Origin: a virus
DNA length: 52,727 bases
Virus record (IMG/VR): IMGVR_UViG_3300032050_000188
Coordinates: 1 to 52,727 of that record
Direction: 5' to 3' (one strand)
Of this stretch, positions 7,848 through 30,962 are shown one piece after another. Positions within the stretch are counted from its first letter, which is position 1; every line of letters starts with the position of its first letter. The position numbers were made by a program, and so were the translations under genes. The notes below the pieces were generated by a model, which made no database searches, had not been told where the DNA came from, and worked only from the letters and a program-made list of their open reading frames with translations.

Positions 7848-7878
7848 TATGGCTCTCGAAACCTGTAACGGAGCACCC

Positions 7879-8715
7879 ATGAAAGAGCCAGTTATTTACA
7901 AAATTCGCAACGTGGTCAACGGTAAGTTTTATGTTGGAAGCACTACAAGCACCCGAGAACGCTTTCGTAACCACAGAAAAATGTTGCGCGGCAACCGTCA
8001 TCATTGTTTGCACCTTCAGGCCTCATGGAACAAATACGGAGAGGACTGCTTTAAGTTTGAGGTTGTTGAAACAGCAGTGTCTGAAGAAATGCTTTGGCAA
8101 GTTGAAGATCGGTGGCTGGATGAAAATTTCGGCAAGCCGCACTGTTACAACTCAGGGAGATCTGCTGCTGCGCCAATGAGAGGCCGCACAGGAGAACTTA
8201 GCCCCAATTACGGGCGTGTTTGGGGGCAGGAGTTCAAAGACAGAGTTTCTGATGGCGTCAAAGCTCTTTATGCCGCAGACCCGTCCAGTCACCCAAGACT
8301 TGGTAAACAGCACACAGAGGAAACAAAAGCAAAGATTAGTGCCAAGGTTCAACAGGCTGTAGCAGAAGGGCGTGGCGGAGCGTTTATACCCTCCGACGAG
8401 ACTCGTCAGAAGATGTCAGACGCGCTTAAGGGTAACCAAAACGCCCTTGGCTACAAGCGAACTGACGCTGAACGCGAGGCTATCCGTCAACGGACGCTGG
8501 GCAACAAGAACTTCCTTGGCAAAACCCACACTGAGGCGTCCAAGGAAAAGATGCGCAAGAAGGTGCTGGAGCAGACCTCAGGACAGTTGTTTGACAGCCT
8601 GACCGCTGTGCTGACGCACTACCAAATGACCATGCCCACGTTGCGCCGTGCTTTGGTCTCCGGCAAACCAATTGGCAAGGGCAAGTTTACGGGGCTTGTG
8701 TTTGTTTACGCTTGA
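7879..8715 (+). CDS. GIY-YIG homing endonuclease
   Basis: Free-standing mobile endonuclease that would cut alleles lacking the gene and spread by repair. From ATG 7879 (GGAG at 7870-7873, 5 nt spacing; better than an in-frame ATG at 7849) it has 278 residues. The GIY-YIG fold is clear: VIYKI near residue 5, NGKFYVGST near 14-22, then R-H helix residues (RERFRNHRKML) and NKYGEDCFKFEVVE. Downstream are NUMOD3-type DNA-binding repeats (HPRLGKQHTEETKAKI, GNKNFLGKTHTEASKEKM) and a C-terminal NUMOD1-like helix-turn-helix (FDSLTAVLTHYQMTMPTLR). The coding sequence appears more AT-rich than its neighbours. It is inserted between the capsid gene and the next structural gene, with its own promoter-like and operator-like sequences. 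Confidence 0.93.
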   Translation: MKEPVIYKIRNVVNGKFYVGSTTSTRERFRNHRKMLRGNRHHCLHLQASWNKYGEDCFKFEVVETAVSEEMLWQVEDRWLDENFGKPHCYNSGRSAAAPMRGRTGELSPNYGRVWGQEFKDRVSDGVKALYAADPSSHPRLGKQHTEETKAKISAKVQQAVAEGRGGAFIPSDETRQKMSDALKGNQNALGYKRTDAEREAIRQRTLGNKNFLGKTHTEASKEKMRKKVLEQTSGQLFDSLTAVLTHYQMTMPTLRRALVSGKPIGKGKFTGLVFVYA

Positions 8716-9361: not shown

Positions 9362-9616
9362 ATGGCAAAGACCAACTTTAGTCCGACGTTCCCGATGTTT
9401 CCGGGGGACGCCGCTGCAGTCACGCCCAGTGACACGAACAACCTGCGTGAGCCTTCGGTGATCTTTGTGGGCACCACGGGTTCGCTGCGTGTGTTGACGG
9501 CTCAGGGCAGTGATGTGACGTTTGCTGCTGTCCCGGGCGGCACGGTGGTGCCGTTGCAGGTGATCCGCGTGTTTGCGTCTGGTACGTCCGCTACCAACAT
9601 TGTCAGGATTTTCTGA
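9362..9616 (+). CDS. Spike-base-like small protein (RCAP_Rcc01079 type)
   Basis: 84-residue protein whose whole length follows the pattern I remember for the 'spike base protein, RCAP_Rcc01079 family' first noted in gene transfer agent heads: TPSDTNNLREP, then IFVGTTGSLRVLTAQG, VTFAAVPGGTVVPLQVIRV and FASGTSATNIVRIF. In that context the protein attaches head-spike fibres to the capsid. Here it is directly followed, with a 1-nt overlap at TGATG, by two proteins carrying a head-spike-fibre type domain, which supports the call. A G-run (9353-9357) serves as SD. Family match is from memory. Confidence 0.72.
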   Translation: MAKTNFSPTFPMFPGDAAAVTPSDTNNLREPSVIFVGTTGSLRVLTAQGSDVTFAAVPGGTVVPLQVIRVFASGTSATNIVRIF

Positions 9617-11124
9617 TGTCGTTCGGGTTTGGCTTCGCGCTTCCTGCGTACCCGTTGCGTGGTGGCACGGGGAACAACCCGTTCAATCAGCTTGGCCCGA
9701 CGTTGGACCTGTCTTTTGCGGGGGTGGTGACTGACCTAACCGACCCAAACGGGTACACGCTCAACACCGATTTCATCATCCCGCAGTATCAGATTGCTGC
9801 TCAATATGTAGTTTGGGAGACCGGCGTGGGACTCGTAGACAAAACCTTCTCGCAGATCATCACCTTTACCCGTGCATCGACGGCTACCTACTTCGACTCT
9901 GCCGGCGTGTTGCAGAGCGCCGCCATCGACGCCCCCCGCCTGGACTACAACCCGAGCACGCTTGCTGCGCAAGGCTTCTTGATTGAGGAGGCGAGGACGA
10001 ATTCACTGCCGCGCAGCGAAGAGTTCAGTGATGCAAGCTGGACAAAGGGCGGGGCTACCGTAACTGCTGATTCAACGACAGCGCCCAGCGGGACAGCCAC
10101 GGCAGACACGCTTGTTGAAGACACCTCAACCGGGCAGCACCGCGTTTATCGGTCGGTATCTGGCACGACAAACACAAACCCATATACCTACTCAATCTTT
10201 GCCAAGGCCAGCACACGAACTCGTGTCTACGTTGGTATTGCAGAGGGGACTACGTTTGTTCGCCAAGGAAATGCTGTTTTTGATTTGTCGGCGGGCATTG
10301 TTGTGAGTGCAGGGGGCGGAAGCGGAGGTGCTACCGGAGGTTCAGCAACAATTCAAAACGTCGGCAACGGCTGGTATCGCTGCACTTACACGCTGACCCT
10401 TGGCGGCACGGACACGACTATCTTTGGCGACATCAACTTAGTCAGTACAGGCACAACGATCAGCTACACCGGAAATGGAACAGCAGGCCTGTTCATCTGG
10501 GGCGCTCAACTCGAAGCCGGAGCCTTCGCCACCAGCTACATCCCCACAACGACAACGGCACTGACGCGCTCTGCTGACGTTGCCAGCGTGAATACGTTGT
10601 CGCCTTGGTATAACGCGACGGCTTCGACGCTTTACACCGAGTTCAACACTCCTGTGCCAACTACGGTAACAAACTCCGCAGTTGTTGCTGGGTATGACGA
10701 TGGAACTGCAAACAATCGGTTCTCAAACTTTTATACGTCAAACACAGGTGCTGTAAACACTATCCAAGTGACCGGTGGCGCAACAAACTACACAATCTCC
10801 GCTGTCACTGGGCTGGCGCTTTCCAACGTGCAAAAGCAGGCAACACGCTTTCAGGCGGGGAGCTATGCGTCATCCGCAAACGGCGCGGCGGCGGTAACGG
10901 ACTCGTTTGCTTCTGCACCGCCTACAGTCAACACGCTAAGGTTCGGTCTGCGCCCAAGTGGCACTCAAGCAAATATGTGGCTTCGCAGGGTGACTGTGTA
11001 TCCACGCGGCCTCACAAACCTAGAACTGCAAACGATCACGCTGCCAGCGGGTGCGACGATTACCACGCAAGACTACTCGTTTGATTCCAACTTCACCGGC
11101 AACACGGTTGCTATCGGGTCGTAA
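9616..11124 (+). CDS. Head-spike / fibre protein, copy 1
   Basis: 502-residue secretion-independent virion protein. Near residue 82 it carries the block FTRASTATYFDSAGVLQSAA, RLDYNP and GFLIEEARTN, which I know from proteins annotated 'phage head spike fiber domain'. It is followed by jelly-roll, carbohydrate-binding-like sequence (SIFAKASTRTRVYVGI, GWYRCTYTLTLGG, FIWGAQLEAGAFATSYIP) and a C-terminal LamG/concanavalin-like part (SPWYNATASTLYTEF, NTLRFGLRPSG, WLRRVTVYPRGLTNLELQ). It probably binds host or environmental glycans. Start ATG overlaps the spike-base stop (TGATG). A paralogous gene follows at 11136. Confidence 0.82.
   Translation: MSFGFGFALPAYPLRGGTGNNPFNQLGPTLDLSFAGVVTDLTDPNGYTLNTDFIIPQYQIAAQYVVWETGVGLVDKTFSQIITFTRASTATYFDSAGVLQSAAIDAPRLDYNPSTLAAQGFLIEEARTNSLPRSEEFSDASWTKGGATVTADSTTAPSGTATADTLVEDTSTGQHRVYRSVSGTTNTNPYTYSIFAKASTRTRVYVGIAEGTTFVRQGNAVFDLSAGIVVSAGGGSGGATGGSATIQNVGNGWYRCTYTLTLGGTDTTIFGDINLVSTGTTISYTGNGTAGLFIWGAQLEAGAFATSYIPTTTTALTRSADVASVNTLSPWYNATASTLYTEFNTPVPTTVTNSAVVAGYDDGTANNRFSNFYTSNTGAVNTIQVTGGATNYTISAVTGLALSNVQKQATRFQAGSYASSANGAAAVTDSFASAPPTVNTLRFGLRPSGTQANMWLRRVTVYPRGLTNLELQTITLPAGATITTQDYSFDSNFTGNTVAIGS
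9859..10001 (+). repeat. Direct repeat, spike domain copy 1
   Basis: 143-bp block with a diverged, gap-free second copy at 11184-11326 (offset 1325 bp). It encodes the FTRAST...EEARTN domain in both spike genes and includes an identical TTGAGGAGGCGAGGACGAA-type end. It marks a tandem gene duplication and a potential recombination site. Confidence 0.85.
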
Positions 11125-11135
11125 GGAGCGAAGGC

Positions 11136-12368
11136 ATGCCAACCGTAACCACATACCCAGGCGTTTTTGGGCCTTACAGCCCGATCACCTTCACCCGTGC
11201 CAGCACGGCCACGTACTTCGACAGCACGGGCACCCTGCAGAGCGCAGCCATTGACGCTCCACGCCTGGACTACAACCCCAGCACGCTGGCGGCTCAGGGG
11301 CTGCTGATTGAGGAGGCGAGGACGAACAGCATCCGCAACAACACCATGGTGGGTGCGGTAGCTGGGACGCCGGGGACGCTGCCGACGAATTGGACTACAA
11401 GCCTTGCTGGAGGCGTATCAAGGGAAATTGTTGGTATTGGAACTGCAAACGGCATCAACTACATTGACATCCGTATTTTTGGAACAACCACAAACACAAA
11501 CCTTGCGCTCAATCTTGTGCTTGAAGGAAATACAATTGCTGCTGCGGTTGGACAAGTTTGGACAAGCAGTGCTTGGGTGTCTCTTGTCGGCGGCACTACT
11601 ACAGGAATAACTAACGTATACCTTACTCAGACTGAAAGATCCTCCGGTGGTACAGATTTAGCGTATTTAAATGGAACAAGCTTTCTTTCAACAATAAATT
11701 CAAATGTACGCAGAACATATTCTCCAACTTTAAGCAACGCATCCACTGCTTTTATTGTTCCGTCACTTTGGGTAACGCATACAGGTATTGGAGCGGCTGT
11801 TGACTTCACCTTGCGCATCGGCCTTCCCCAGCTAGAGCAGGGCGCGTTTGCCACCTCCGTCATCCCCACCACCACCACCGCGCTGACCCGTGCCCAAGAC
11901 CGTGCTGTAGTCAATACGATCAGCCCTTGGTACAACAGTGTGGCTGGCACCATTTACGCGGAGTTCTCGCTCACTTTGCCTGCGTCTGGGGGTAATCAGT
12001 TTTTTACGCAAACTAGCGATAATAGTTATAACAATCGTATTGTTAATAACATTAGTTCTACTGCTTTTCCAAATACCTCGACAGTGTCTGGCGGCACATC
12101 TGACGGATTTGCTTCTACAGCCGGTGCAGTAACGGCAAACACAACAGTAAAAGTCGCTGCGGCTTATGCGTCAAATGATTTAGCGATTTCTTTGAATGGC
12201 GGAACTGTAGCCACTGACAACACGGTAACCATTCCAAGTGGACTAACGCGCTTTGATCTTGGTTCGGATCACTTGGGTTTCAACAACGTCAAAGCAGGCT
12301 ACCTCCGCCGCATAACCTACTACCCCACGCGGTTGTCCAACGCCCAGTTGCAGGCCATCACAGCATGA
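11136..12368 (+). CDS. Head-spike / fibre protein, copy 2
   Basis: 410-residue paralogue of the preceding gene. The FTRASTATYFDSTGTLQSAA block is at residues ~17-36, the central lectin-like part has diverged (LSNASTAFIVPSLWVTHTG, FTLRIGLPQLEQGAFATSVI), and the C-terminus ends in a LamG-like stretch (SPWYNSVAGTIYAEFSLTL, YLRRITYYPTRLSNAQLQA). The first and last domains resemble copy 1; the middle differs, as expected for a receptor or glycan-binding region under diversifying selection. The middle (about 11400-12150) looks AT-richer than its flanks, which hints at domain exchange. SD is AAGGAG overlapping the previous stop. It overlaps a 25-codon gene by 4 nt (ATGA). Confidence 0.8.
   Translation: MPTVTTYPGVFGPYSPITFTRASTATYFDSTGTLQSAAIDAPRLDYNPSTLAAQGLLIEEARTNSIRNNTMVGAVAGTPGTLPTNWTTSLAGGVSREIVGIGTANGINYIDIRIFGTTTNTNLALNLVLEGNTIAAAVGQVWTSSAWVSLVGGTTTGITNVYLTQTERSSGGTDLAYLNGTSFLSTINSNVRRTYSPTLSNASTAFIVPSLWVTHTGIGAAVDFTLRIGLPQLEQGAFATSVIPTTTTALTRAQDRAVVNTISPWYNSVAGTIYAEFSLTLPASGGNQFFTQTSDNSYNNRIVNNISSTAFPNTSTVSGGTSDGFASTAGAVTANTTVKVAAAYASNDLAISLNGGTVATDNTVTIPSGLTRFDLGSDHLGFNNVKAGYLRRITYYPTRLSNAQLQAITA
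11184..11326 (+). repeat. Direct repeat, spike domain copy 2
   Basis: Second copy of the 143-bp block at 9859-10001, without insertions or deletions; differences are mostly at third codon positions, indicating selection on the encoded domain after duplication. Confidence 0.85.
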
Positions 12369-16535: not shown

Positions 16536-17189
16536 GTGGCGCTCTCGTACTCGCAGCTTCAAGCTGCCGTGGAAGATTATTGCGAAAATACGTTTTCCGC
16601 GACAGATTTCGGGGTTATGACCGGGCTGGCTGAGCAACGTATTTACAACGCTGTTCAGTTGCCGATCCTTCGTAAGAACGTCTTGGGCACTTTGACAATT
16701 GGTAACCAATACCTCTCAGCGCCACCGGACTTCTTGTCGGTTTTTAGTCTCGCGGTTGTAAACGGCTCCAGTTACGAGTTCCTTCTGAACAAAGATGTGA
16801 ACTTTATTCGGGAGTCGTTTCCAAATCCTGCATCTACCGGAGTGCCAAAGTATTACGCGCTGTTTGGACCGAATTCTGTGACCCCCACGGAGCAGACGTT
16901 TATTCTTGGCCCAACGCCAAGCGCAGCGCTGGTAACGGATCTGAACTATTTTGGATACCCCGAGAGCATCGTGACAGCCACCAATACATGGCTTGGCGAC
17001 AATTTTGACAGCGTGCTGTTCAACGCGGTACTGGTCGAAGCTGCCCGGTTCATGAAGCAAGAGCCTGACATCGTGGCCGAGACGGACAAGCAGTACGTGC
17101 AATCCCTGACGCTGCTGAAGAACCTGGGTGATGGTAAAAATAGGATGGATGCGTATCGTAGCGGGCAGGTAAGAACGCAGGTGATCTGA
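16536..17189 (+). CDS. Phage adaptor / head-tail connector protein
   Basis: 217 residues from GTG 16536 (GAGGT upstream). It begins with a helix (YSQLQAAVEDYCENTF), then RIYNAVQLPILRKNV, and YLSAPPDFLSVFSLAVVNGS followed by a beta domain with PKYYALFG and FILGPTPSAALVTDLNYFGY, ending in helices (FNAVLVEAARFMKQEPDI). This is the order of proteins annotated 'phage adaptor protein', related to gp6/gp11 connectors. With the protein at 14428 it probably forms the neck below the portal. Both connectors sit in the same operon, separated by tiny genes. Confidence 0.75.
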   Translation: MALSYSQLQAAVEDYCENTFSATDFGVMTGLAEQRIYNAVQLPILRKNVLGTLTIGNQYLSAPPDFLSVFSLAVVNGSSYEFLLNKDVNFIRESFPNPASTGVPKYYALFGPNSVTPTEQTFILGPTPSAALVTDLNYFGYPESIVTATNTWLGDNFDSVLFNAVLVEAARFMKQEPDIVAETDKQYVQSLTLLKNLGDGKNRMDAYRSGQVRTQVI

Positions 17190-17190
17190 T

Positions 17191-17613
17191 ATGGCTATTG
17201 TTCAAACGCAGACCACCAGCTTCAAGGCGGAACTATTCACAGGCACGCATGTGTTTGGGACGGACACGTTCAAACTTGCCCTGTATGCTTCAACTGCGGA
17301 CCTTGGTGCGGCCACGACGGTCTACACAACTTCCAGTGAGGTGCCCGCAAGCGGCACTTACGCGGCTGGCGGCGGGGTATTGACAGGCGTGTTGGTCTCC
17401 AGTTCTGCCACGACGGCTTGGGTGACGTTTGACAATATCTCGTTCACATCTGCCACGATCACTGCCCGTGGAGCGCTGATCTACAATTTCAGTAAAGGCA
17501 ACAAGAGTGTTGCGGTGCTGGATTTTGGCTCTGACAAAGTGGTAGCAGGCGGCACGTTTACAGTGCAGATGCCCATTGCAAACGCAAGCAACGCATTGAT
17601 TCGCATCGCATAA
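17191..17613 (+). CDS. Beta-rich virion protein A (140 aa)
   Basis: Predicted all-beta protein without cysteines: FKLALYASTADLGAATTVY, a GGG loop, ATTAWVTFDNISFTSATITA, then GALIYNFSKGNKSVAVLDFG and a strand-rich C-terminus with FTVQMP. The gene is 1 base after the adaptor stop, and a similar but diverged protein is encoded next (17624). I remember such single-domain beta proteins next to tail fibre genes in aquatic phages. Probably a tail-tip or fibre-attachment subunit. Confidence 0.72.
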   Translation: MAIVQTQTTSFKAELFTGTHVFGTDTFKLALYASTADLGAATTVYTTSSEVPASGTYAAGGGVLTGVLVSSSATTAWVTFDNISFTSATITARGALIYNFSKGNKSVAVLDFGSDKVVAGGTFTVQMPIANASNALIRIA

Positions 17614-17623
17614 GAGGTAAGAA

Positions 17624-18028
17624 ATGGCAAATGCAATTTATCCGAAGTACAAGGAAACCATCCTTGGAGCAGCGACGAACACCAATCTGCTGTCTGGCAC
17701 GGTGAAGGTTGCTCTGGTTGATACAGGTACATACACCTACTCTGCGGCGCATCAGTTTCTGACTTCACTGACTGGCGTGGTTGGGACGGCTCAGACGATT
17801 GGTGCCACCAAGACTGTGACCGATGGTGTATTTGATGGTGCTGATGTGACCTACACCTCGGTGACTGGCAACTCGGTTGAGGCGCTGGTCATTTATGTTG
17901 ACACTGGTTCGTCGGCAACTTCGCCGCTCGTTGCATATATTGACACCGGAGTAACGGGTTTGCCAGTCACGCCTAATGGCGGCAATATCAGCATTACGTG
18001 GAACGCCAGCGGTATCTTTGCGCTGTAA
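17624..18028 (+). CDS. Beta-rich virion protein B (134 aa)
   Basis: Similar overall plan to the preceding protein: KYKETILGAATNTNLLSGTV, KVALVDTGTYTYSAAHQFLT, DGVFDGADVTYTSVTGNSVE, ALVIYVDTG, and a closing NISITWNASGIFAL. Both share 'xVALYx/KVALV', a surface Thr/Ser-rich turn and a hydrophobic hairpin (ALIY/ALVIY), suggesting one fold from an old duplication. Follows a TAAGAGGTAAG stop/SD junction. Confidence 0.72.
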   Translation: MANAIYPKYKETILGAATNTNLLSGTVKVALVDTGTYTYSAAHQFLTSLTGVVGTAQTIGATKTVTDGVFDGADVTYTSVTGNSVEALVIYVDTGSSATSPLVAYIDTGVTGLPVTPNGGNISITWNASGIFAL

Positions 18029-18031
18029 GGT

Positions 18032-18685
18032 ATGTCTCTCCCAAATGACTCAATCGCCGTCACCCCTGGCTCGGGGGCGACGGTGGCCACACAACTGGTG
18101 TCCTCCAAGGAGTACCAAGTGGTCATGCTGGCGCTGCCAGACGGGCACCTGAGTGGCAGCCTGCCGCAGTACCGCATGATCTGCCCCGCGCAGGCGGTGG
18201 GTGCCAACAAGGTGTTTTTGGACCTGTTCAACGCCACCGGAAGCGGGGTTTCGCTGCGCGTGCTGTCCGCGTACTGTTACGTGGACAACGACACGGCAGT
18301 GACGGGCACCTTGGGGGTTGAGGTCAACCTGACGCGCACCACGGCGGTAGGAACGGGCGGCACCGCGGCTACTGCCGATGGCACCTCGCTGACCGCCATC
18401 ACCATCAGCAAGATGGATACCGCTAACGCTGCGCTGTCGGCCAACATCACGGCCCGTTCTGCTCCCGGTGGTGGAGCAACGGCTGGCGCTCTGATCGGAC
18501 AGCGGTTTGTGTTCACCGAGGAGACCAACGCCGCCAGCGGCATTGCTGGGGTCTTGGGAGCGGAGTTTGTCCGCAACGAGGGCGCGGACTTGATCGTGCG
18601 CGAGAACACCGGCCTGCGGTTTGTACAAGGCTCTGTGGCGTCTGTAGGCAGTCTGTCCTTCGAGATCACCTTCGAGGTGTTCTAA
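18032..18685 (+). CDS. Beta-rich virion protein C (217 aa)
   Basis: Ala/Thr/Val/Gly-rich beta protein: QVVMLALPDGHLSGSLPQY, FLDLFNATGSGVSLRVLSAY, TGTLGVEVNLTRTTAVGTGG, then FVFTEETNAASGIAGVLGAE and a C-terminal SLSFEITFEVF. There are no catalytic motifs. Short SD-like AAGG overlaps the preceding stop. High GC and clean beta alternation suggest an external decoration, baseplate or fibre-knob protein. No family name recognised. Confidence 0.68.
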   Translation: MSLPNDSIAVTPGSGATVATQLVSSKEYQVVMLALPDGHLSGSLPQYRMICPAQAVGANKVFLDLFNATGSGVSLRVLSAYCYVDNDTAVTGTLGVEVNLTRTTAVGTGGTAATADGTSLTAITISKMDTANAALSANITARSAPGGGATAGALIGQRFVFTEETNAASGIAGVLGAEFVRNEGADLIVRENTGLRFVQGSVASVGSLSFEITFEVF

Positions 18686-19720
18686 ATGTCGTTGCTACTG
18701 CTGTTTAGAGACAGCGGAAGCGGACCAGCGACACAGGTCCTAACTCCGGACCTGTACAACAACACCCAGACCTTTTACGGTCCAACGGTCACGCGTGGTA
18801 CGGTCACGCTGACTCCGGCGCTGTTTACAAACAGCAACAGCCTTTTCTCTGCTACGGTCAGCGCAACAAACACGTTGACCCCGGCGCTGTACACGAACAC
18901 TAACACGTTCTTTGCAGCAACGGTTTCTCAAGGCGGAGCAACTCAGACCCTTTCGCCTTCGCTGTTTACGAACAGCAATGAGTTCTTCAGCCCGACAGTA
19001 GCTCGTGGCACGGTAACGCTGCAACCGGCTCGGTACGATAACGCACAGAGCTTCTTTGTCCCCACCATTACTCGTGGCGCAGTTGCCCTTACCCCTGCAC
19101 GCTACGACAACGAACAGACCTTCTACGGCCCGACAGTAGCTCGTGGCGCTGTCACACTTACTCCCGCCCGTTACGACAACGCGCAGAGCTTCTTTTCAGC
19201 CACCTTGACGCAGGGCACGGTAACGCTCCAACCGGCTCGATACGACAACAGTCAAAGTTTCTTTGCGTCCACGGTCACGACAAGCAGCACGCTGAACCCG
19301 GTAAGGTACGACAACGAGCAGGTGTTTTTTGCCCCGGTAGTCAGTGACGCGTATATCCTGACCCCTGCAAGATTCGACAACCCGCAGGAGTTTTACGCCC
19401 CTGTAGTTGCCGACACGTACACAGTAACCCCGGAACGGTACGACAACAGCCAGAACTTCTACCCGGCAACGGTTGATGGCGGCAACGTCGTTACCATAGT
19501 TTTGACTGGCGTGCAAGCCGTTGGGCTGTTAGGATACGTAAACGTCTGGGGGCTGACCCCTGGCCCACCAATTTTGGAGTGGGATGCTGTAGAAGATGCG
19601 CAAACGCCAAACTGGGCCGCAGCGGGTACAGTTCAAACACCTGGGTGGCTCCCACCATCAACGACTCAAGTCCCCGGATGGGCGCTTGTGACAGACACGC
19701 AAAACCCCAACTGGCAATAA
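18686..19720 (+). CDS. Eleven-repeat fibrous protein
   Basis: 344 residues starting immediately after the previous TAA. After a short leader with LLLLF come eleven tandem units of 22-25 residues (residues ~18-270) of consensus T-L-x-P-A-R-Y-D-N-x-Q-x-F-F-x-P-T-V-x-x-G-x-V. The Pro, Asn and paired aromatics are nearly invariant. This is followed by a LTGVQAVGLLGYVNVWGL strand pair and then four short repeats ending in Q-x-P-x-W (DAQTPNW, TVQTPGW, TTQVPGW, DTQNPNW). The architecture suggests a beta-repeat shaft and a tip with exposed tryptophans, such as a host-recognition fibre. Directly upstream of the tail-fibre gene. Confidence 0.75.
   Translation: MSLLLLFRDSGSGPATQVLTPDLYNNTQTFYGPTVTRGTVTLTPALFTNSNSLFSATVSATNTLTPALYTNTNTFFAATVSQGGATQTLSPSLFTNSNEFFSPTVARGTVTLQPARYDNAQSFFVPTITRGAVALTPARYDNEQTFYGPTVARGAVTLTPARYDNAQSFFSATLTQGTVTLQPARYDNSQSFFASTVTTSSTLNPVRYDNEQVFFAPVVSDAYILTPARFDNPQEFYAPVVADTYTVTPERYDNSQNFYPATVDGGNVVTIVLTGVQAVGLLGYVNVWGLTPGPPILEWDAVEDAQTPNWAAAGTVQTPGWLPPSTTQVPGWALVTDTQNPNWQ
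18737..19494 (+). repeat. Eleven coding tandem repeats of ~69 bp
   Basis: Repeat units encode T-P-x-x-Y-D-N-x-Q-x-F-F segments; the middle five units are most alike at DNA level (shared GGCTCGATACGACAA-like stretches), while the first four are more diverged (Phe/Tyr-Thr-Asn in place of Tyr-Asp-Asn). This gradient suggests expansion of internal units by unequal recombination. Confidence 0.85.
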
Positions 19721-22544: not shown

Positions 22545-23102
22545 TTACTCTTCGGCCAGACTCGCCCAGCGTTTGCCTTTTTCGATAAGGTAGATGGTGG
22601 AGGCGTGAACGCCAGCAATGATTGCCAAAGAGTTAGCGGAGACGCCGGCACGAAGAGCGCGTCGGATATGAATCACTTGCTGTTGGGAGAGCTTGTGCCC
22701 AGGAGCATTTTCTCCTCGCAAGTCAACAAGCCCCGTGGCCCATTGATGTTTGGTGTTCTCCGAAGGAGTTACCCACTCAAGGTTTTCCGGTCTGTTGTCC
22801 AGTTTGTTTCCGTTGATGTGGTTGACCGTCAGCCCATCCACAAAACCGGGCACAAAAGCCAGGGCAACCAACCTGTGAACAAAAACTTTTGGACGTATGT
22901 CGCCAAGTTTTGCAGAGACAACGTGGTATCCGTTGCTGCTGACCCACGGACGAATCTCTGTGGCTTGACGAACGCTGGTAAAAGACTGCTGTTTGCCATT
23001 TCTAGTTCTAATAGATGTGGTAACAATCTCTGGTCGAAAGATGCTGGCATCCTCGCGGACAAGCCACTCAATGCCTTTTTCGGTAACGGGTATTTGCTTC
23101 AT
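22545..23102 (-). CDS. HNH homing endonuclease inserted in the lysis cassette
   Basis: 185 residues from ATG 23102 (an upstream TTG at 23138 is less likely). The HNH_3-type core is clear: VFVHRLVALAFVPGF, then TVNHINGNKLDNRPENLEW and VTPSENTKHQWATG; H76, H95 and N107 are the likely metal/catalytic residues. The C-terminal GENAPGHKLSQQQVIHIR and ANSLAIIAGVHASTIYLI form a helix-turn-helix that recognises the target. It is opposite to the operon, ending 2 bp after the holin stop, and its start is 39 bp from the lysozyme start. No strong SD is seen for it. Confidence 0.92.
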   Translation of the reverse strand: MKQIPVTEKGIEWLVREDASIFRPEIVTTSIRTRNGKQQSFTSVRQATEIRPWVSSNGYHVVSAKLGDIRPKVFVHRLVALAFVPGFVDGLTVNHINGNKLDNRPENLEWVTPSENTKHQWATGLVDLRGENAPGHKLSQQQVIHIRRALRAGVSANSLAIIAGVHASTIYLIEKGKRWASLAEE

Positions 23103-23141
23103 GCTGTCAATGGTACAGTAGGACACGGGTAGAGGCAAGCC

Positions 23142-29900: not shown

Positions 29901-30962
29901 AAGACTGAAGTTGCTGCGCCAAGTCCTGCTCCTGCCGAAGCTCCCGCTCCTAGTCCAGCACCAGCGCCCTCAGAAGCACCTGCGCCCGCTCCAGCCCCCG
30001 CTAAAGTTACCGCTCCTGCTGAGGCACCGGCTCCAAGTCCTGCTTCAACGGAAGCGCCTGCACCAGCGCCGAGTACAACTGAGACCAAGACGGAAGCCCC
30101 GGCACCTGCCGCGCCATCTCCCGCGCCTGCCCCAACGACGACTGAAACCAAAACAGAAGCACCCGCTCCAGCCCCCACAACCACGGAAACCAAAACGGAA
30201 GCGCCGGCTCCCGCCCCGGCAACTACGGAAACTAGGACTGAGGCACCTGCGCCTGCTCCGAGCACAACGGAAACAAAGACCGAGGCACCTGCTCCGGCAC
30301 CTACGACCACTGAAATTAAGACTGAGGCACCCGCTCCTGCTCCGACGACAACTGAGACTAAAACAGAGGCTCCTGCACCTGCCCCAAGCACAACGGAAAC
30401 TAAGACCGAAGCACCTGCTCCGGCACCTAGTCCTGCACCGGCTCCTGCAGAAGTAACTACCGCAGCGCCGGCTCCTGCACCAGCACCCGCGCCAACAACT
30501 CAAGCTCCTACACCTGCGCCTCCTCCGGCTCAACCGCCTGCACAACCTCCAGCGCAGCCACCGTCTCAGCCCCCCGCACAACCTCCCGCGACCACACCCC
30601 CTGGAGAGGACGTTCTGCCGCCTGTGACAGAGGAAGAGTTGCGCGAGATTGTTTCCGGGCCTCCACCGGCACCGCCTGCGCCAACACCTGCGCCCCCAGC
30701 ACCAACGCCTGCGCCTCCCGCACCTACGCCGGCACCTCCTGCGCCGACAGTTAAACCTCCAGCGGTTAAACCAACTAGCCCTGCGCCGTCTCCTGCGGCA
30801 CAATTGGCTATGCCTAAGATGACGCCAGAGTTGGCTAACTTCATTCAAGAACTGATGCAGACGGACGAAGCAGATCTGCTCCAGTTGACCACCGCGCTCA
30901 AAGCAGAGCGTGAAGAAAAACGTGAAGGCTTGCGTGGCAAGCTGAAATCTAGAAAGGCTTGA
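26964..30962 (+). CDS. Giant Pro/Ala-rich internal virion protein
   Basis: 1332 residues. Residues ~20-45 are Pro/Ala-rich. Residues ~50-93 carry a GWGGFTGEEKIQYFNQHGIT-type module shared with the next gene. Around 200-280 there is a hydrophobic Ala/Gly-rich stretch (FALGVGPLGGMLGSTVAGAL, GTTVGSAGLGILQG), then a helical region and a Gly/Asp-rich linker. Residues ~830-1290 are almost entirely Pro-Ala-Ser with repeated TTTETKTEAPAPAP, ending in a charged helix (ERVE-like, REEKREGLRGKLKSRKA). The order fits an ejected or internal protein with a membrane-active centre and a disordered PEVK-like tail. It starts in an ATGA overlap. Confidence 0.7.
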   Translation: MIPRLQTEYEVEDAADEDELRRIVRGAAPAPSPAPAPAPAASTTDWMSNTPTGWGGFTGEEKIQYFNQHGITPEQLAPYATPEEIQYFYDHMGYTVGKPTTAPAPTVAPAPPLTPFDVFKQDLFTTEMLPTGASPETGADQFQAGARSYQLGNQTVVPDDQGGYVVNTPTAQDGIYKAERFDASGKKIGEFINDARNTDLQDLAQLATFALGVGPLGGMLGSTVAGALGIPVATATSAGLTAAQLAALGTTVGSAGLGILQGQDPLDVLQNAIRAGATAFLPSQVSSFIPSTGTAALDAALKTATEAGVRTAVNGGDVESAVIGSLVNSGVGAATGATGLPPELVNAAINVAKSGGDPQKIFNAVVSAGPAIQGLQNYYSKTDTGDETARLTARYGTAFDNFNSYLKQVAANAEPFEPTQFASPEQASIFDNFVEQFANGAGRAPDADETTLLLALANPDLANKLNTTVTDTGTSALHELLNKKPQAASLLQTILERTPGQGDLLELLKKPVQSGVAQTPALPQAAMTARDLFRGAGSEYTNVYPGALLTSGTGGQGWFAGPGAATFASEMMGLMSDPTLTAEERAFFTDQLRQAAMKPELVNQVPGLATYNPYISDTSRTREGTSATSAGGGKDGGGKDNTGSDGGVTTLPPFVTAGTRIANPAAIDALIDVIGGSSVDPITGSVIPDGGNQLDTATIVGQDEDGNPITTGDILGGSASIPTSSIRTAENVTTPDFDLDTSQIINDYVNDILGGQAVSDIPSVTPSGTPALDAYEVLWTNPVTGENVTKEDLGVTATVSPSVTPSVAPAAAPATGTILSTDPTQGTALVVDPSGNTKVVDVSPDSKPGDTVNIGAAPTPAPTPAAPAPAPALNLSTPIATDPATGEVLTLGDVLPSPPPAPSPAPSPAPSPAPATTTALVTAPAPAPAPSPAPSPAPSPAPAPAVDLTTPVAVDPITGETLTLADVTPSTPAPAPAEVKTEVAAPSPAPAEAPAPSPAPAPSEAPAPAPAPAKVTAPAEAPAPSPASTEAPAPAPSTTETKTEAPAPAAPSPAPAPTTTETKTEAPAPAPTTTETKTEAPAPAPATTETRTEAPAPAPSTTETKTEAPAPAPTTTEIKTEAPAPAPTTTETKTEAPAPAPSTTETKTEAPAPAPSPAPAPAEVTTAAPAPAPAPAPTTQAPTPAPPPAQPPAQPPAQPPSQPPAQPPATTPPGEDVLPPVTEEELREIVSGPPPAPPAPTPAPPAPTPAPPAPTPAPPAPTVKPPAVKPTSPAPSPAAQLAMPKMTPELANFIQELMQTDEADLLQLTTALKAEREEKREGLRGKLKSRKA
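30135..30428 (+). repeat. Seven contiguous 42-bp coding repeats
   Basis: Each unit encodes (T/S/A)-T-T-E-(T/I)-(K/R)-T-E-A-P-A-P-A-P. An eighth, separated copy lies just upstream (~30070-30112). Units differ mostly at synonymous sites. The wider region 29520-30780 is low-complexity Pro-Ala coding DNA, which explains the long, Gly/Ala-rich antisense open frames seen there. Confidence 0.9.

What the first reader, a model, noticed from the sequence alone, without database searches (positions are those of the whole stretch)
18686..19720. Eleven tandem Y-D-N-x-Q-x-F-F repeats plus four Q-x-P-x-W tips
The protein is almost entirely repetitive, with units of 22-25 residues that do not match a fibre repeat I know. 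Diverged outer and homogenised inner units suggest ongoing copy-number change. The terminal tryptophan repeats could bind sugars. It is likely a variable host-range component.
Basis: seen in the sequence. Interest (0 to 1): 0.5.

Follow-up and report, generated by a model that had tools for sequence, protein, structure and literature searches.

The report
Repeat rod paired with tail arm
A phage gene from an environmental sample encodes a protein of eleven similar short repeats that probably stacks into a rod on the phage tail; evolution lengthens, shortens and re-tips the rod, yet it is found together with one small tail protein, which suggests that the two work as a portable pair.

Summary
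The repeats are real: 11 units of 22-25 residues and four QxPxW motifs. They are not being homogenised: matching units in relatives are far more alike than units within the protein. Copy number does change by whole units: 9, 10, 11 and 11 in four close relatives (window included), and 3 to 40 units across the wider family.
The main new result is a partner gene. The small gene at 17624-18028 ("p644b") lies upstream of the repeat gene in 26 of 26 loci with over 3 kb upstream. In a reciprocal scan, 45 of 45 p644b loci with at least 3 kb downstream carry the repeats. None of 27 related phages without repeats has p644b. p644b is homologous to Bxb1 gp31, a solved virion "tail wing arm". So the repeat protein is most likely a tail appendage.
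AlphaFold2 gives a beta-solenoid (pLDDT about 80), but that program over-predicts this fold for repeats; paired residue changes support extended strands. Caps and body vary; the C-terminal part is conserved. Sugar binding and host range were not testable. New variant of a known kind.

The parts
18686..19720 (+). repeat (YDN) gene, 344 aa
   Evidence: phrog_8501 'minor tail protein' E 3.8e-12; no Pfam match
18686..18739 (+). N-terminal cap MSLLLLFRDSGSGPATQV, exchanged for MAAAFQ.. in relatives L002 and L137
18740..19474 (+). eleven 22-25-residue units, predicted beta-solenoid
19478..19717 (+). conserved C-terminal part: one TGVQA-type unit, then four QxPxW motifs (19601-19714)
   Evidence: no fold predicted
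17624..18028 (+). p644b, 134 aa, linked partner gene; homologue of Bxb1 gp31 'tail wing arm'
17191..17613 (+). p644a, second phrog_644-type gene, present also in relatives without repeats; not detectably alike p644b
18032..18685 (+). 217-aa protein of unknown function; another gene stands there in L067
19724..20752 (+). fibre gene; its N-terminal part is shared by relatives, with distal parts swapped (pectate-lyase-like, S74 chaperone)
16536..17189 (+). SU10-type adaptor protein
   Evidence: Pfam PF24175 E 6.9e-15

Best explanation
The gene encodes a rod-like tail appendage. Each 22-25-residue unit forms one coil of a beta-solenoid, so the number of units sets the rod's length. The rod is docked on or held at the tail by the small protein p644b, a relative of the Bxb1 tail-wing arm. 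Across the family the N-terminal caps and the C-terminal ends are of many kinds, while the units themselves and p644b stay together; so p644b most likely contacts the repeats. Shown: the repeats, whole-unit copy-number change, module exchange, the two-way p644b linkage, the homology of p644b to a virion protein, and (in one group of relatives) stronger constraint on the C-terminal part than on the body. Predicted only: the solenoid fold. Inferred: virion location, docking by p644b, and a part in adsorption.
For: Linkage: p644b is upstream in 26 of 26 distinct repeat genes with over 3 kb upstream, at 69-100% identity; the most frequent of the other 11 window genes tested is in 8 of 26. Reciprocal scan: 45 of 45 p644b loci with at least 3 kb downstream have the repeats, 27 of these on contigs that the repeat scans had not found (contig names compared by hand). 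Of 28 loci of the window's phage relatives covering the slot, 27 lack repeats and none of these has p644b; the one with repeats has it. The pair also occurs in isolate Pam2, a phage with a long non-contractile tail (PMC9382816, passages read), whereas the window has an SU10-type adaptor. p644b against solved structures: 9d93_Ra 'Tail wing arm, gp31', E 2.3e-10 with a 10-row profile and 5.2e-8 with the single sequence; the aligned letters of that chain are those of Bxb1 gp31. Fold: repeats at pLDDT about 80 with three short strands per unit; best matches are right-handed beta-helices, EtpA Z 20.2 at 3.0 A over 280 residues and 3p4g Z 18.1 at 3.0 A over 248; NCBIfam filamentous-hemagglutinin beta-helix repeat E 3.7e-5, above its cut-off. 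Independent of AlphaFold: unit positions 5 and 7 pair R/K with D/E/N in 160 units and other with other in 170, with 13 exceptions among 343 distinct units; this is by far the highest excess mutual information (0.90, next 0.24).
Against: No virion proteomics was seen for any member. AlphaFold2 is known to predict confident, unrealistic beta-solenoids for repeats (PMC11795689; abstract and sections 3.2.2 and 3.2.8 read); only a monomer was modelled; the five models had mean pLDDT 69 down to 52. Foldseek found no PDB match at E 0.001 or better. The hemagglutinin repeat match had no single stretch passing the threshold. p644-type genes also occur in phages without these repeats (Mycobacterium and Pseudomonas phages), so the wider family does not need the rod. 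Five p644b loci with 1.5-2.9 kb downstream show no repeats, though the gap reaches 4.2 kb in positive loci.
Confidence: 0.62

Rival explanations
1. The repeats are an unfolded or extended spacer, or an intertwined trimeric fibre, and not a single-chain solenoid; it is still a tail appendage.
For: AlphaFold2's known bias for repeats (PMC11795689); no Foldseek PDB match at E 0.001 or better; trimers could not be modelled.
Against: Units are diverged (54% mean identity), not perfect copies; unit spacing is tightly limited (20, 22-25); paired changes at positions 5/7, 2/4 and 16/18 fit extended strands, which a trimer would also show.
Confidence: 0.3
2. One reading: the protein is the host-range determinant and its tryptophan repeats bind sugars at the distal tip.
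For: It lies directly upstream of a swapped receptor-binding-type fibre gene; bodies and caps are exchanged between relatives.
Against: The QxPxW end is the conserved end in close relatives; no Pfam family of any kind matched; no fold predicted; dN/dS of the repeats is 0.19-0.26, purifying.
Confidence: 0.2
3. The conserved C-terminal part is the virion anchor and the varying N-terminal caps are the distal tips, the reverse of ordinary fibres.
For: In the L005 group C-terminal and body dS are alike (0.76 and 0.86 for L005/L014) but dN is about ten times lower in the C-terminal part (0.024 against 0.266); caps differ completely where exchanged (4-32% identity).
Against: In the window's own group the conserved end is also a recombination joint (dS 0.04-0.16, against 0.24-1.19 in the body), so conservation there need not be functional; in L004/L051 the cap is identical.
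Confidence: 0.35
4. It is not in the virion, but is a chaperone or assembly factor for the neighbouring fibre.
For: Adjacent to the fibre gene in the window's group.
Against: In 19 of 26 loci no homologue of that fibre is seen in the stretch fetched; its constant partner is a virion-type protein; PHROG label 'minor tail protein'.
Confidence: 0.1

Closest known systems
PHROG 8501, 'minor tail protein'
   Same: Its 133-position profile matches the repeats (E 3.8e-12; also L022, L021, L029 and L005).
   Different: A label without tested function; it says nothing of modules, copy number or p644b.
Pseudanabaena phage Pam2 protein UQS94948.1
   Same: Repeat protein with 13 units by the loose motif; p644b homologue 72% identical, 3.3 kb upstream.
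   Different: A phage with a long non-contractile tail; other N- and C-termini; annotated hypothetical.
Bxb1 gp31, 'tail wing arm' (PDB 9d93)
   Same: Homologue of the partner p644b.
   Different: 106 residues; Bxb1 was not among the records matched by the repeats.
Filamentous-hemagglutinin-type beta-helices (EtpA, HMW1, TIGR01731)
   Same: Among the best structural matches, and a weak repeat-profile match.
   Different: Those are secreted bacterial adhesins; 10-12% identity; no secretion domain seen here.

Membership tests
PHROG 8501 minor tail protein | sequence match to the family profile | tested here: met
   E 3.8e-12, 47.6 bits
Right-handed beta-helix (filamentous-hemagglutinin type) | repeat profile TIGR01731 above its cut-off | tested here: inconclusive
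   23.6 bits against cut-off 18, but no single stretch passes
Right-handed beta-helix (filamentous-hemagglutinin type) | stacked three-strand coils in a solved structure | not testable with these tools
   only an AlphaFold2 monomer, pLDDT about 80, with known bias (PMC11795689)
Two-partner secretion adhesin (EtpA, HMW1) | N-terminal secretion domain and signal peptide (recalled) | tested here: not met
   residues 1-18 are a short cap and then the units begin; no Pfam family matches
Ordinary tail fibre | conserved N-terminal virion anchor with variable C-terminus (recalled) | tested here: not met
   the opposite pattern in most pairs: C-terminal part 87-99% identical, caps often exchanged; caps kept in 4 of 13 pairs
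Tail appendage of the virion | present in purified virions | not testable with these tools
   supplementary proteomics of Pam2 not readable here; main text does not mention gp68
Choline-binding or other known W-repeat sugar binder | Pfam match | tested here: not met
   no Pfam family at E up to 1 for the whole protein

The most novel reading that the evidence does not exclude
The repeats and p644b are a portable two-part tail accessory: p644b, a wing-arm protein, grips the repeat itself, so any cap, any end and any number of units can be exchanged without losing attachment. This would let phages with different tails acquire, lengthen and re-tip the same rod.
Probability: 0.35. Interest if true: 0.65.

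Novelty: new variant of a known kind. Interest (0 to 1): 0.5.

Why it matters
Most phage genes near the tail are unnamed. Here a two-way gene linkage joins an uncharacterised repeat protein, found in many environmental phage contigs, to a tail component with a solved structure. That gives a concrete, testable partner pair and a natural series of rod lengths (3 to 40 units) for asking how appendage length and tip exchange affect adsorption.

Tried and rejected
Homogenisation by gene conversion: rejected, since orthologous units are closer than paralogous ones. Positive selection on the repeats: dN/dS 0.19-0.26 against the window's relatives, so purifying overall, though above the adaptor's 0.08-0.11. 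Presence in cellular genomes: one scan of genome contigs gave one hit, L055, an unrelated 202-aa gene with a chance YDNTNTFY. Isolate phages: only Pam2 (three repeat queries), and a weak 26% match in Microcystis phage Mwe-JY26. Solved structures of the repeats by sequence: chance-level or none. The QxPxW part alone: no secondary structure, pTM 0.13. The BFVD search gave two hits at E below 0.001, neither with a useful name. The C-terminal domain of the L005 group has no isolate match and was found only in that group. Papers: searches for the PHROG name, Pam2, DSL-LC04, repeat copy number in tail fibres, solenoid receptor-binding proteins and module exchange showed no description of this family in their listings; of those papers I read only passages and one section of PMC9382816 and passages of PMC10286775. 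The Bxb1 structure paper is not held; that 9d93 is Bxb1 rests on the sequence match.

Limits of counts. The unit motif itself requires some residues; with position 8 left free, N is there in 98% of 343 units (in one search it was 100% by construction). Unit counts depend on the motif: L002 has 9 or 10, Pam2 9 or 13. L211 counts as positive with only 2 units. The alignment for folding held 28 of the 36 distinct relatives' ORFs; incomplete ones, L011, L023 and L038 were left out. One search's output was cut in view. Viral scans match exact 8-residue words and keep at most 80 loci, so the family is larger than shown. The 26-locus set excludes loci with under 3 kb upstream; of all 36 ORFs, 30 have p644b, and the six without have under 3 kb upstream. 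Some loci are near-identical copies, so counts are not independent events.

Full report
What is there. The gene at 18686-19720 encodes 344 residues: an 18-residue cap, eleven units of 22-25 residues, one TGVQA-type unit and four QxPxW motifs spaced exactly 11 residues apart. The unit motif does not occur in 2000 shuffles. Units fall in two classes, RYDN and LYTN. Over 343 distinct units, residue 5 R/K goes with D/E/N at residue 7 in 160 cases, other residues go with other residues in 170, and 13 break the rule. The next strongest couplings are much weaker; they include 2/4 and 16/18, also two apart, but also 4/7 and 4/5. At least two units of each class occur in 27 of 37 proteins, so the pairing is not just a split between proteins.

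Surroundings. The window is an IMG/VR virus record of 52,727 bases. Nearby genes are an SU10-type adaptor, two phrog_644-type genes (p644a, p644b), a 217-aa protein, the repeat gene, a fibre gene, a glycine-rich protein, lysis-type genes and a protein matched by 'stabilization' proteins of other phages.

Copy number. Close relatives have 9 (L001), 10 (L002) and 11 (L137) units, against 11 here. L002 and L137 differ by one exact 23-residue unit in one place, plus a single residue elsewhere. Counterpart units are 91% (L001) and 77% (L002) identical on average over 17 positions; units within the protein average 54%. So copies are gained and lost, but not homogenised. Across the family the counts run from 3 to 40.

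Modules. Thirty-six distinct relatives were read. Caps include short hydrophobic, AFQ-type, a domain of about 230 residues, and a glycine-rich domain; ends include QxPxW, an ITRAQAR domain, RQPMP and RSFTERRRF types. In phages related to the window the slot before the fibre gene can instead hold other repeats (TGVxATG, TATD, RPVDxPNP types) ending in the same QxPxW part, or a cap with almost nothing else (L138). Of 28 loci from the stabilization-protein scan that hold both a p644 gene and the fibre gene, 7 have a QxPxW-type protein, in all 7 directly before the fibre gene, and 1 of 28 has the repeats. In the QxPxW scan 12 of 16 loci have it directly before the fibre gene; one has it elsewhere, one is cut, and two show no fibre homologue.

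Recombination and constraint. Between the window and L001, dS is 0.63 in the adaptor, 0.01-0.02 in p644a/b, 0.26 in the repeats, 0.05 in the C-terminal part and 1.33 in the fibre: a mosaic. L014 and L015 share a body (dS 0.04) but not the C-terminal part (dS 0.58), an exchange inside the gene. In the L005 group the two parts have like dS, but dN is much lower in the C-terminal part (0.02-0.08 against 0.18-0.27, leaving out the L014/L015 pair), so that end is functionally constrained there. In the window's group the low dS at that end points to recent exchange, so constraint cannot be claimed from it.

Partner gene. p644b lies upstream of all 26 distinct repeat genes with over 3 kb upstream; each of the other 11 window genes tested is found in at most 8 of these 26. 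A scan begun from p644b gave 80 loci: 56 have repeats downstream, including 54 of 59 with at least 1.5 kb and 45 of 45 with at least 3 kb downstream. None of 27 related phages without repeats has p644b, though all have p644a. A Fisher test of 26/26 against 0/27 gives 1e-15, but relatedness makes that only indicative. p644a and p644b are not detectably alike by sequence, although both match the PHROG 644 profile. p644b matches the solved 'Tail wing arm, gp31', identical in the aligned stretch to Bxb1 gp31. In the Corndog-type phage JangDynasty its homologue is annotated minor tail protein and follows a carboxypeptidase tail gene, as gp31 does in Bxb1. The repeat pair is also in Pam2, whose long non-contractile tail is described in PMC9382816.

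Fold. AlphaFold2 with 29 sequences gives a regular beta-solenoid over about residues 16-265 (pLDDT about 80) and nothing for the C-terminus. VIA-align places right-handed beta-helices first (the handedness of those entries is recalled). These Z values are raised by repetition, Foldseek has no PDB match at E 0.001, and AlphaFold2 is biased to this answer (PMC11795689), although that paper found agreement between programs for four families whose repeats have diverged.

Conclusion. Best reading: a tail appendage, probably a solenoid rod of adjustable length, tied to a wing-arm-type protein. Virion location, docking and host contact are inferences. Because caps and ends differ across the family while the units and p644b stay together, the simplest reading is that p644b touches the units.

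Noticed in passing
window 22545-23138 (-): HNH endonuclease gene (PF13392 E 5.6e-14) on the opposite strand between the lysis genes; in L137 the flanking genes abut without it, so it looks like an inserted homing endonuclease.
   Followed up: partly
window 7849-8715 (+): Homing endonuclease (phrog_314 E 7.1e-42) directly after the capsid-type gene.
   Followed up: no
window 30123-30429: Second coding tandem array, period 42 (126) bases, inside a 1332-aa ORF without PHROG match.
   Followed up: no
window 9616-12368: Two adjacent genes match the same tail-protein family, phrog_5939.
   Followed up: no
L138 6666-7943: In a relative the slot holds two enzyme-like genes, one methyltransferase-like at low score, next to a QxPxW protein without the repeats.
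   Followed up: partly
L057 6127-8700: A relative without the repeat gene joins the fibre N-terminus to a pectate-lyase-like beta-helix (PF12708 E 1.3e-15), a likely tailspike.
   Followed up: partly
L208: Repeat protein of 1230 aa with 40 units by the motif, the longest seen.
   Followed up: no
L140 5847-8447: QxPxW-type protein with many more W motifs and RPVDxPNP-type repeats in the same slot.
   Followed up: no
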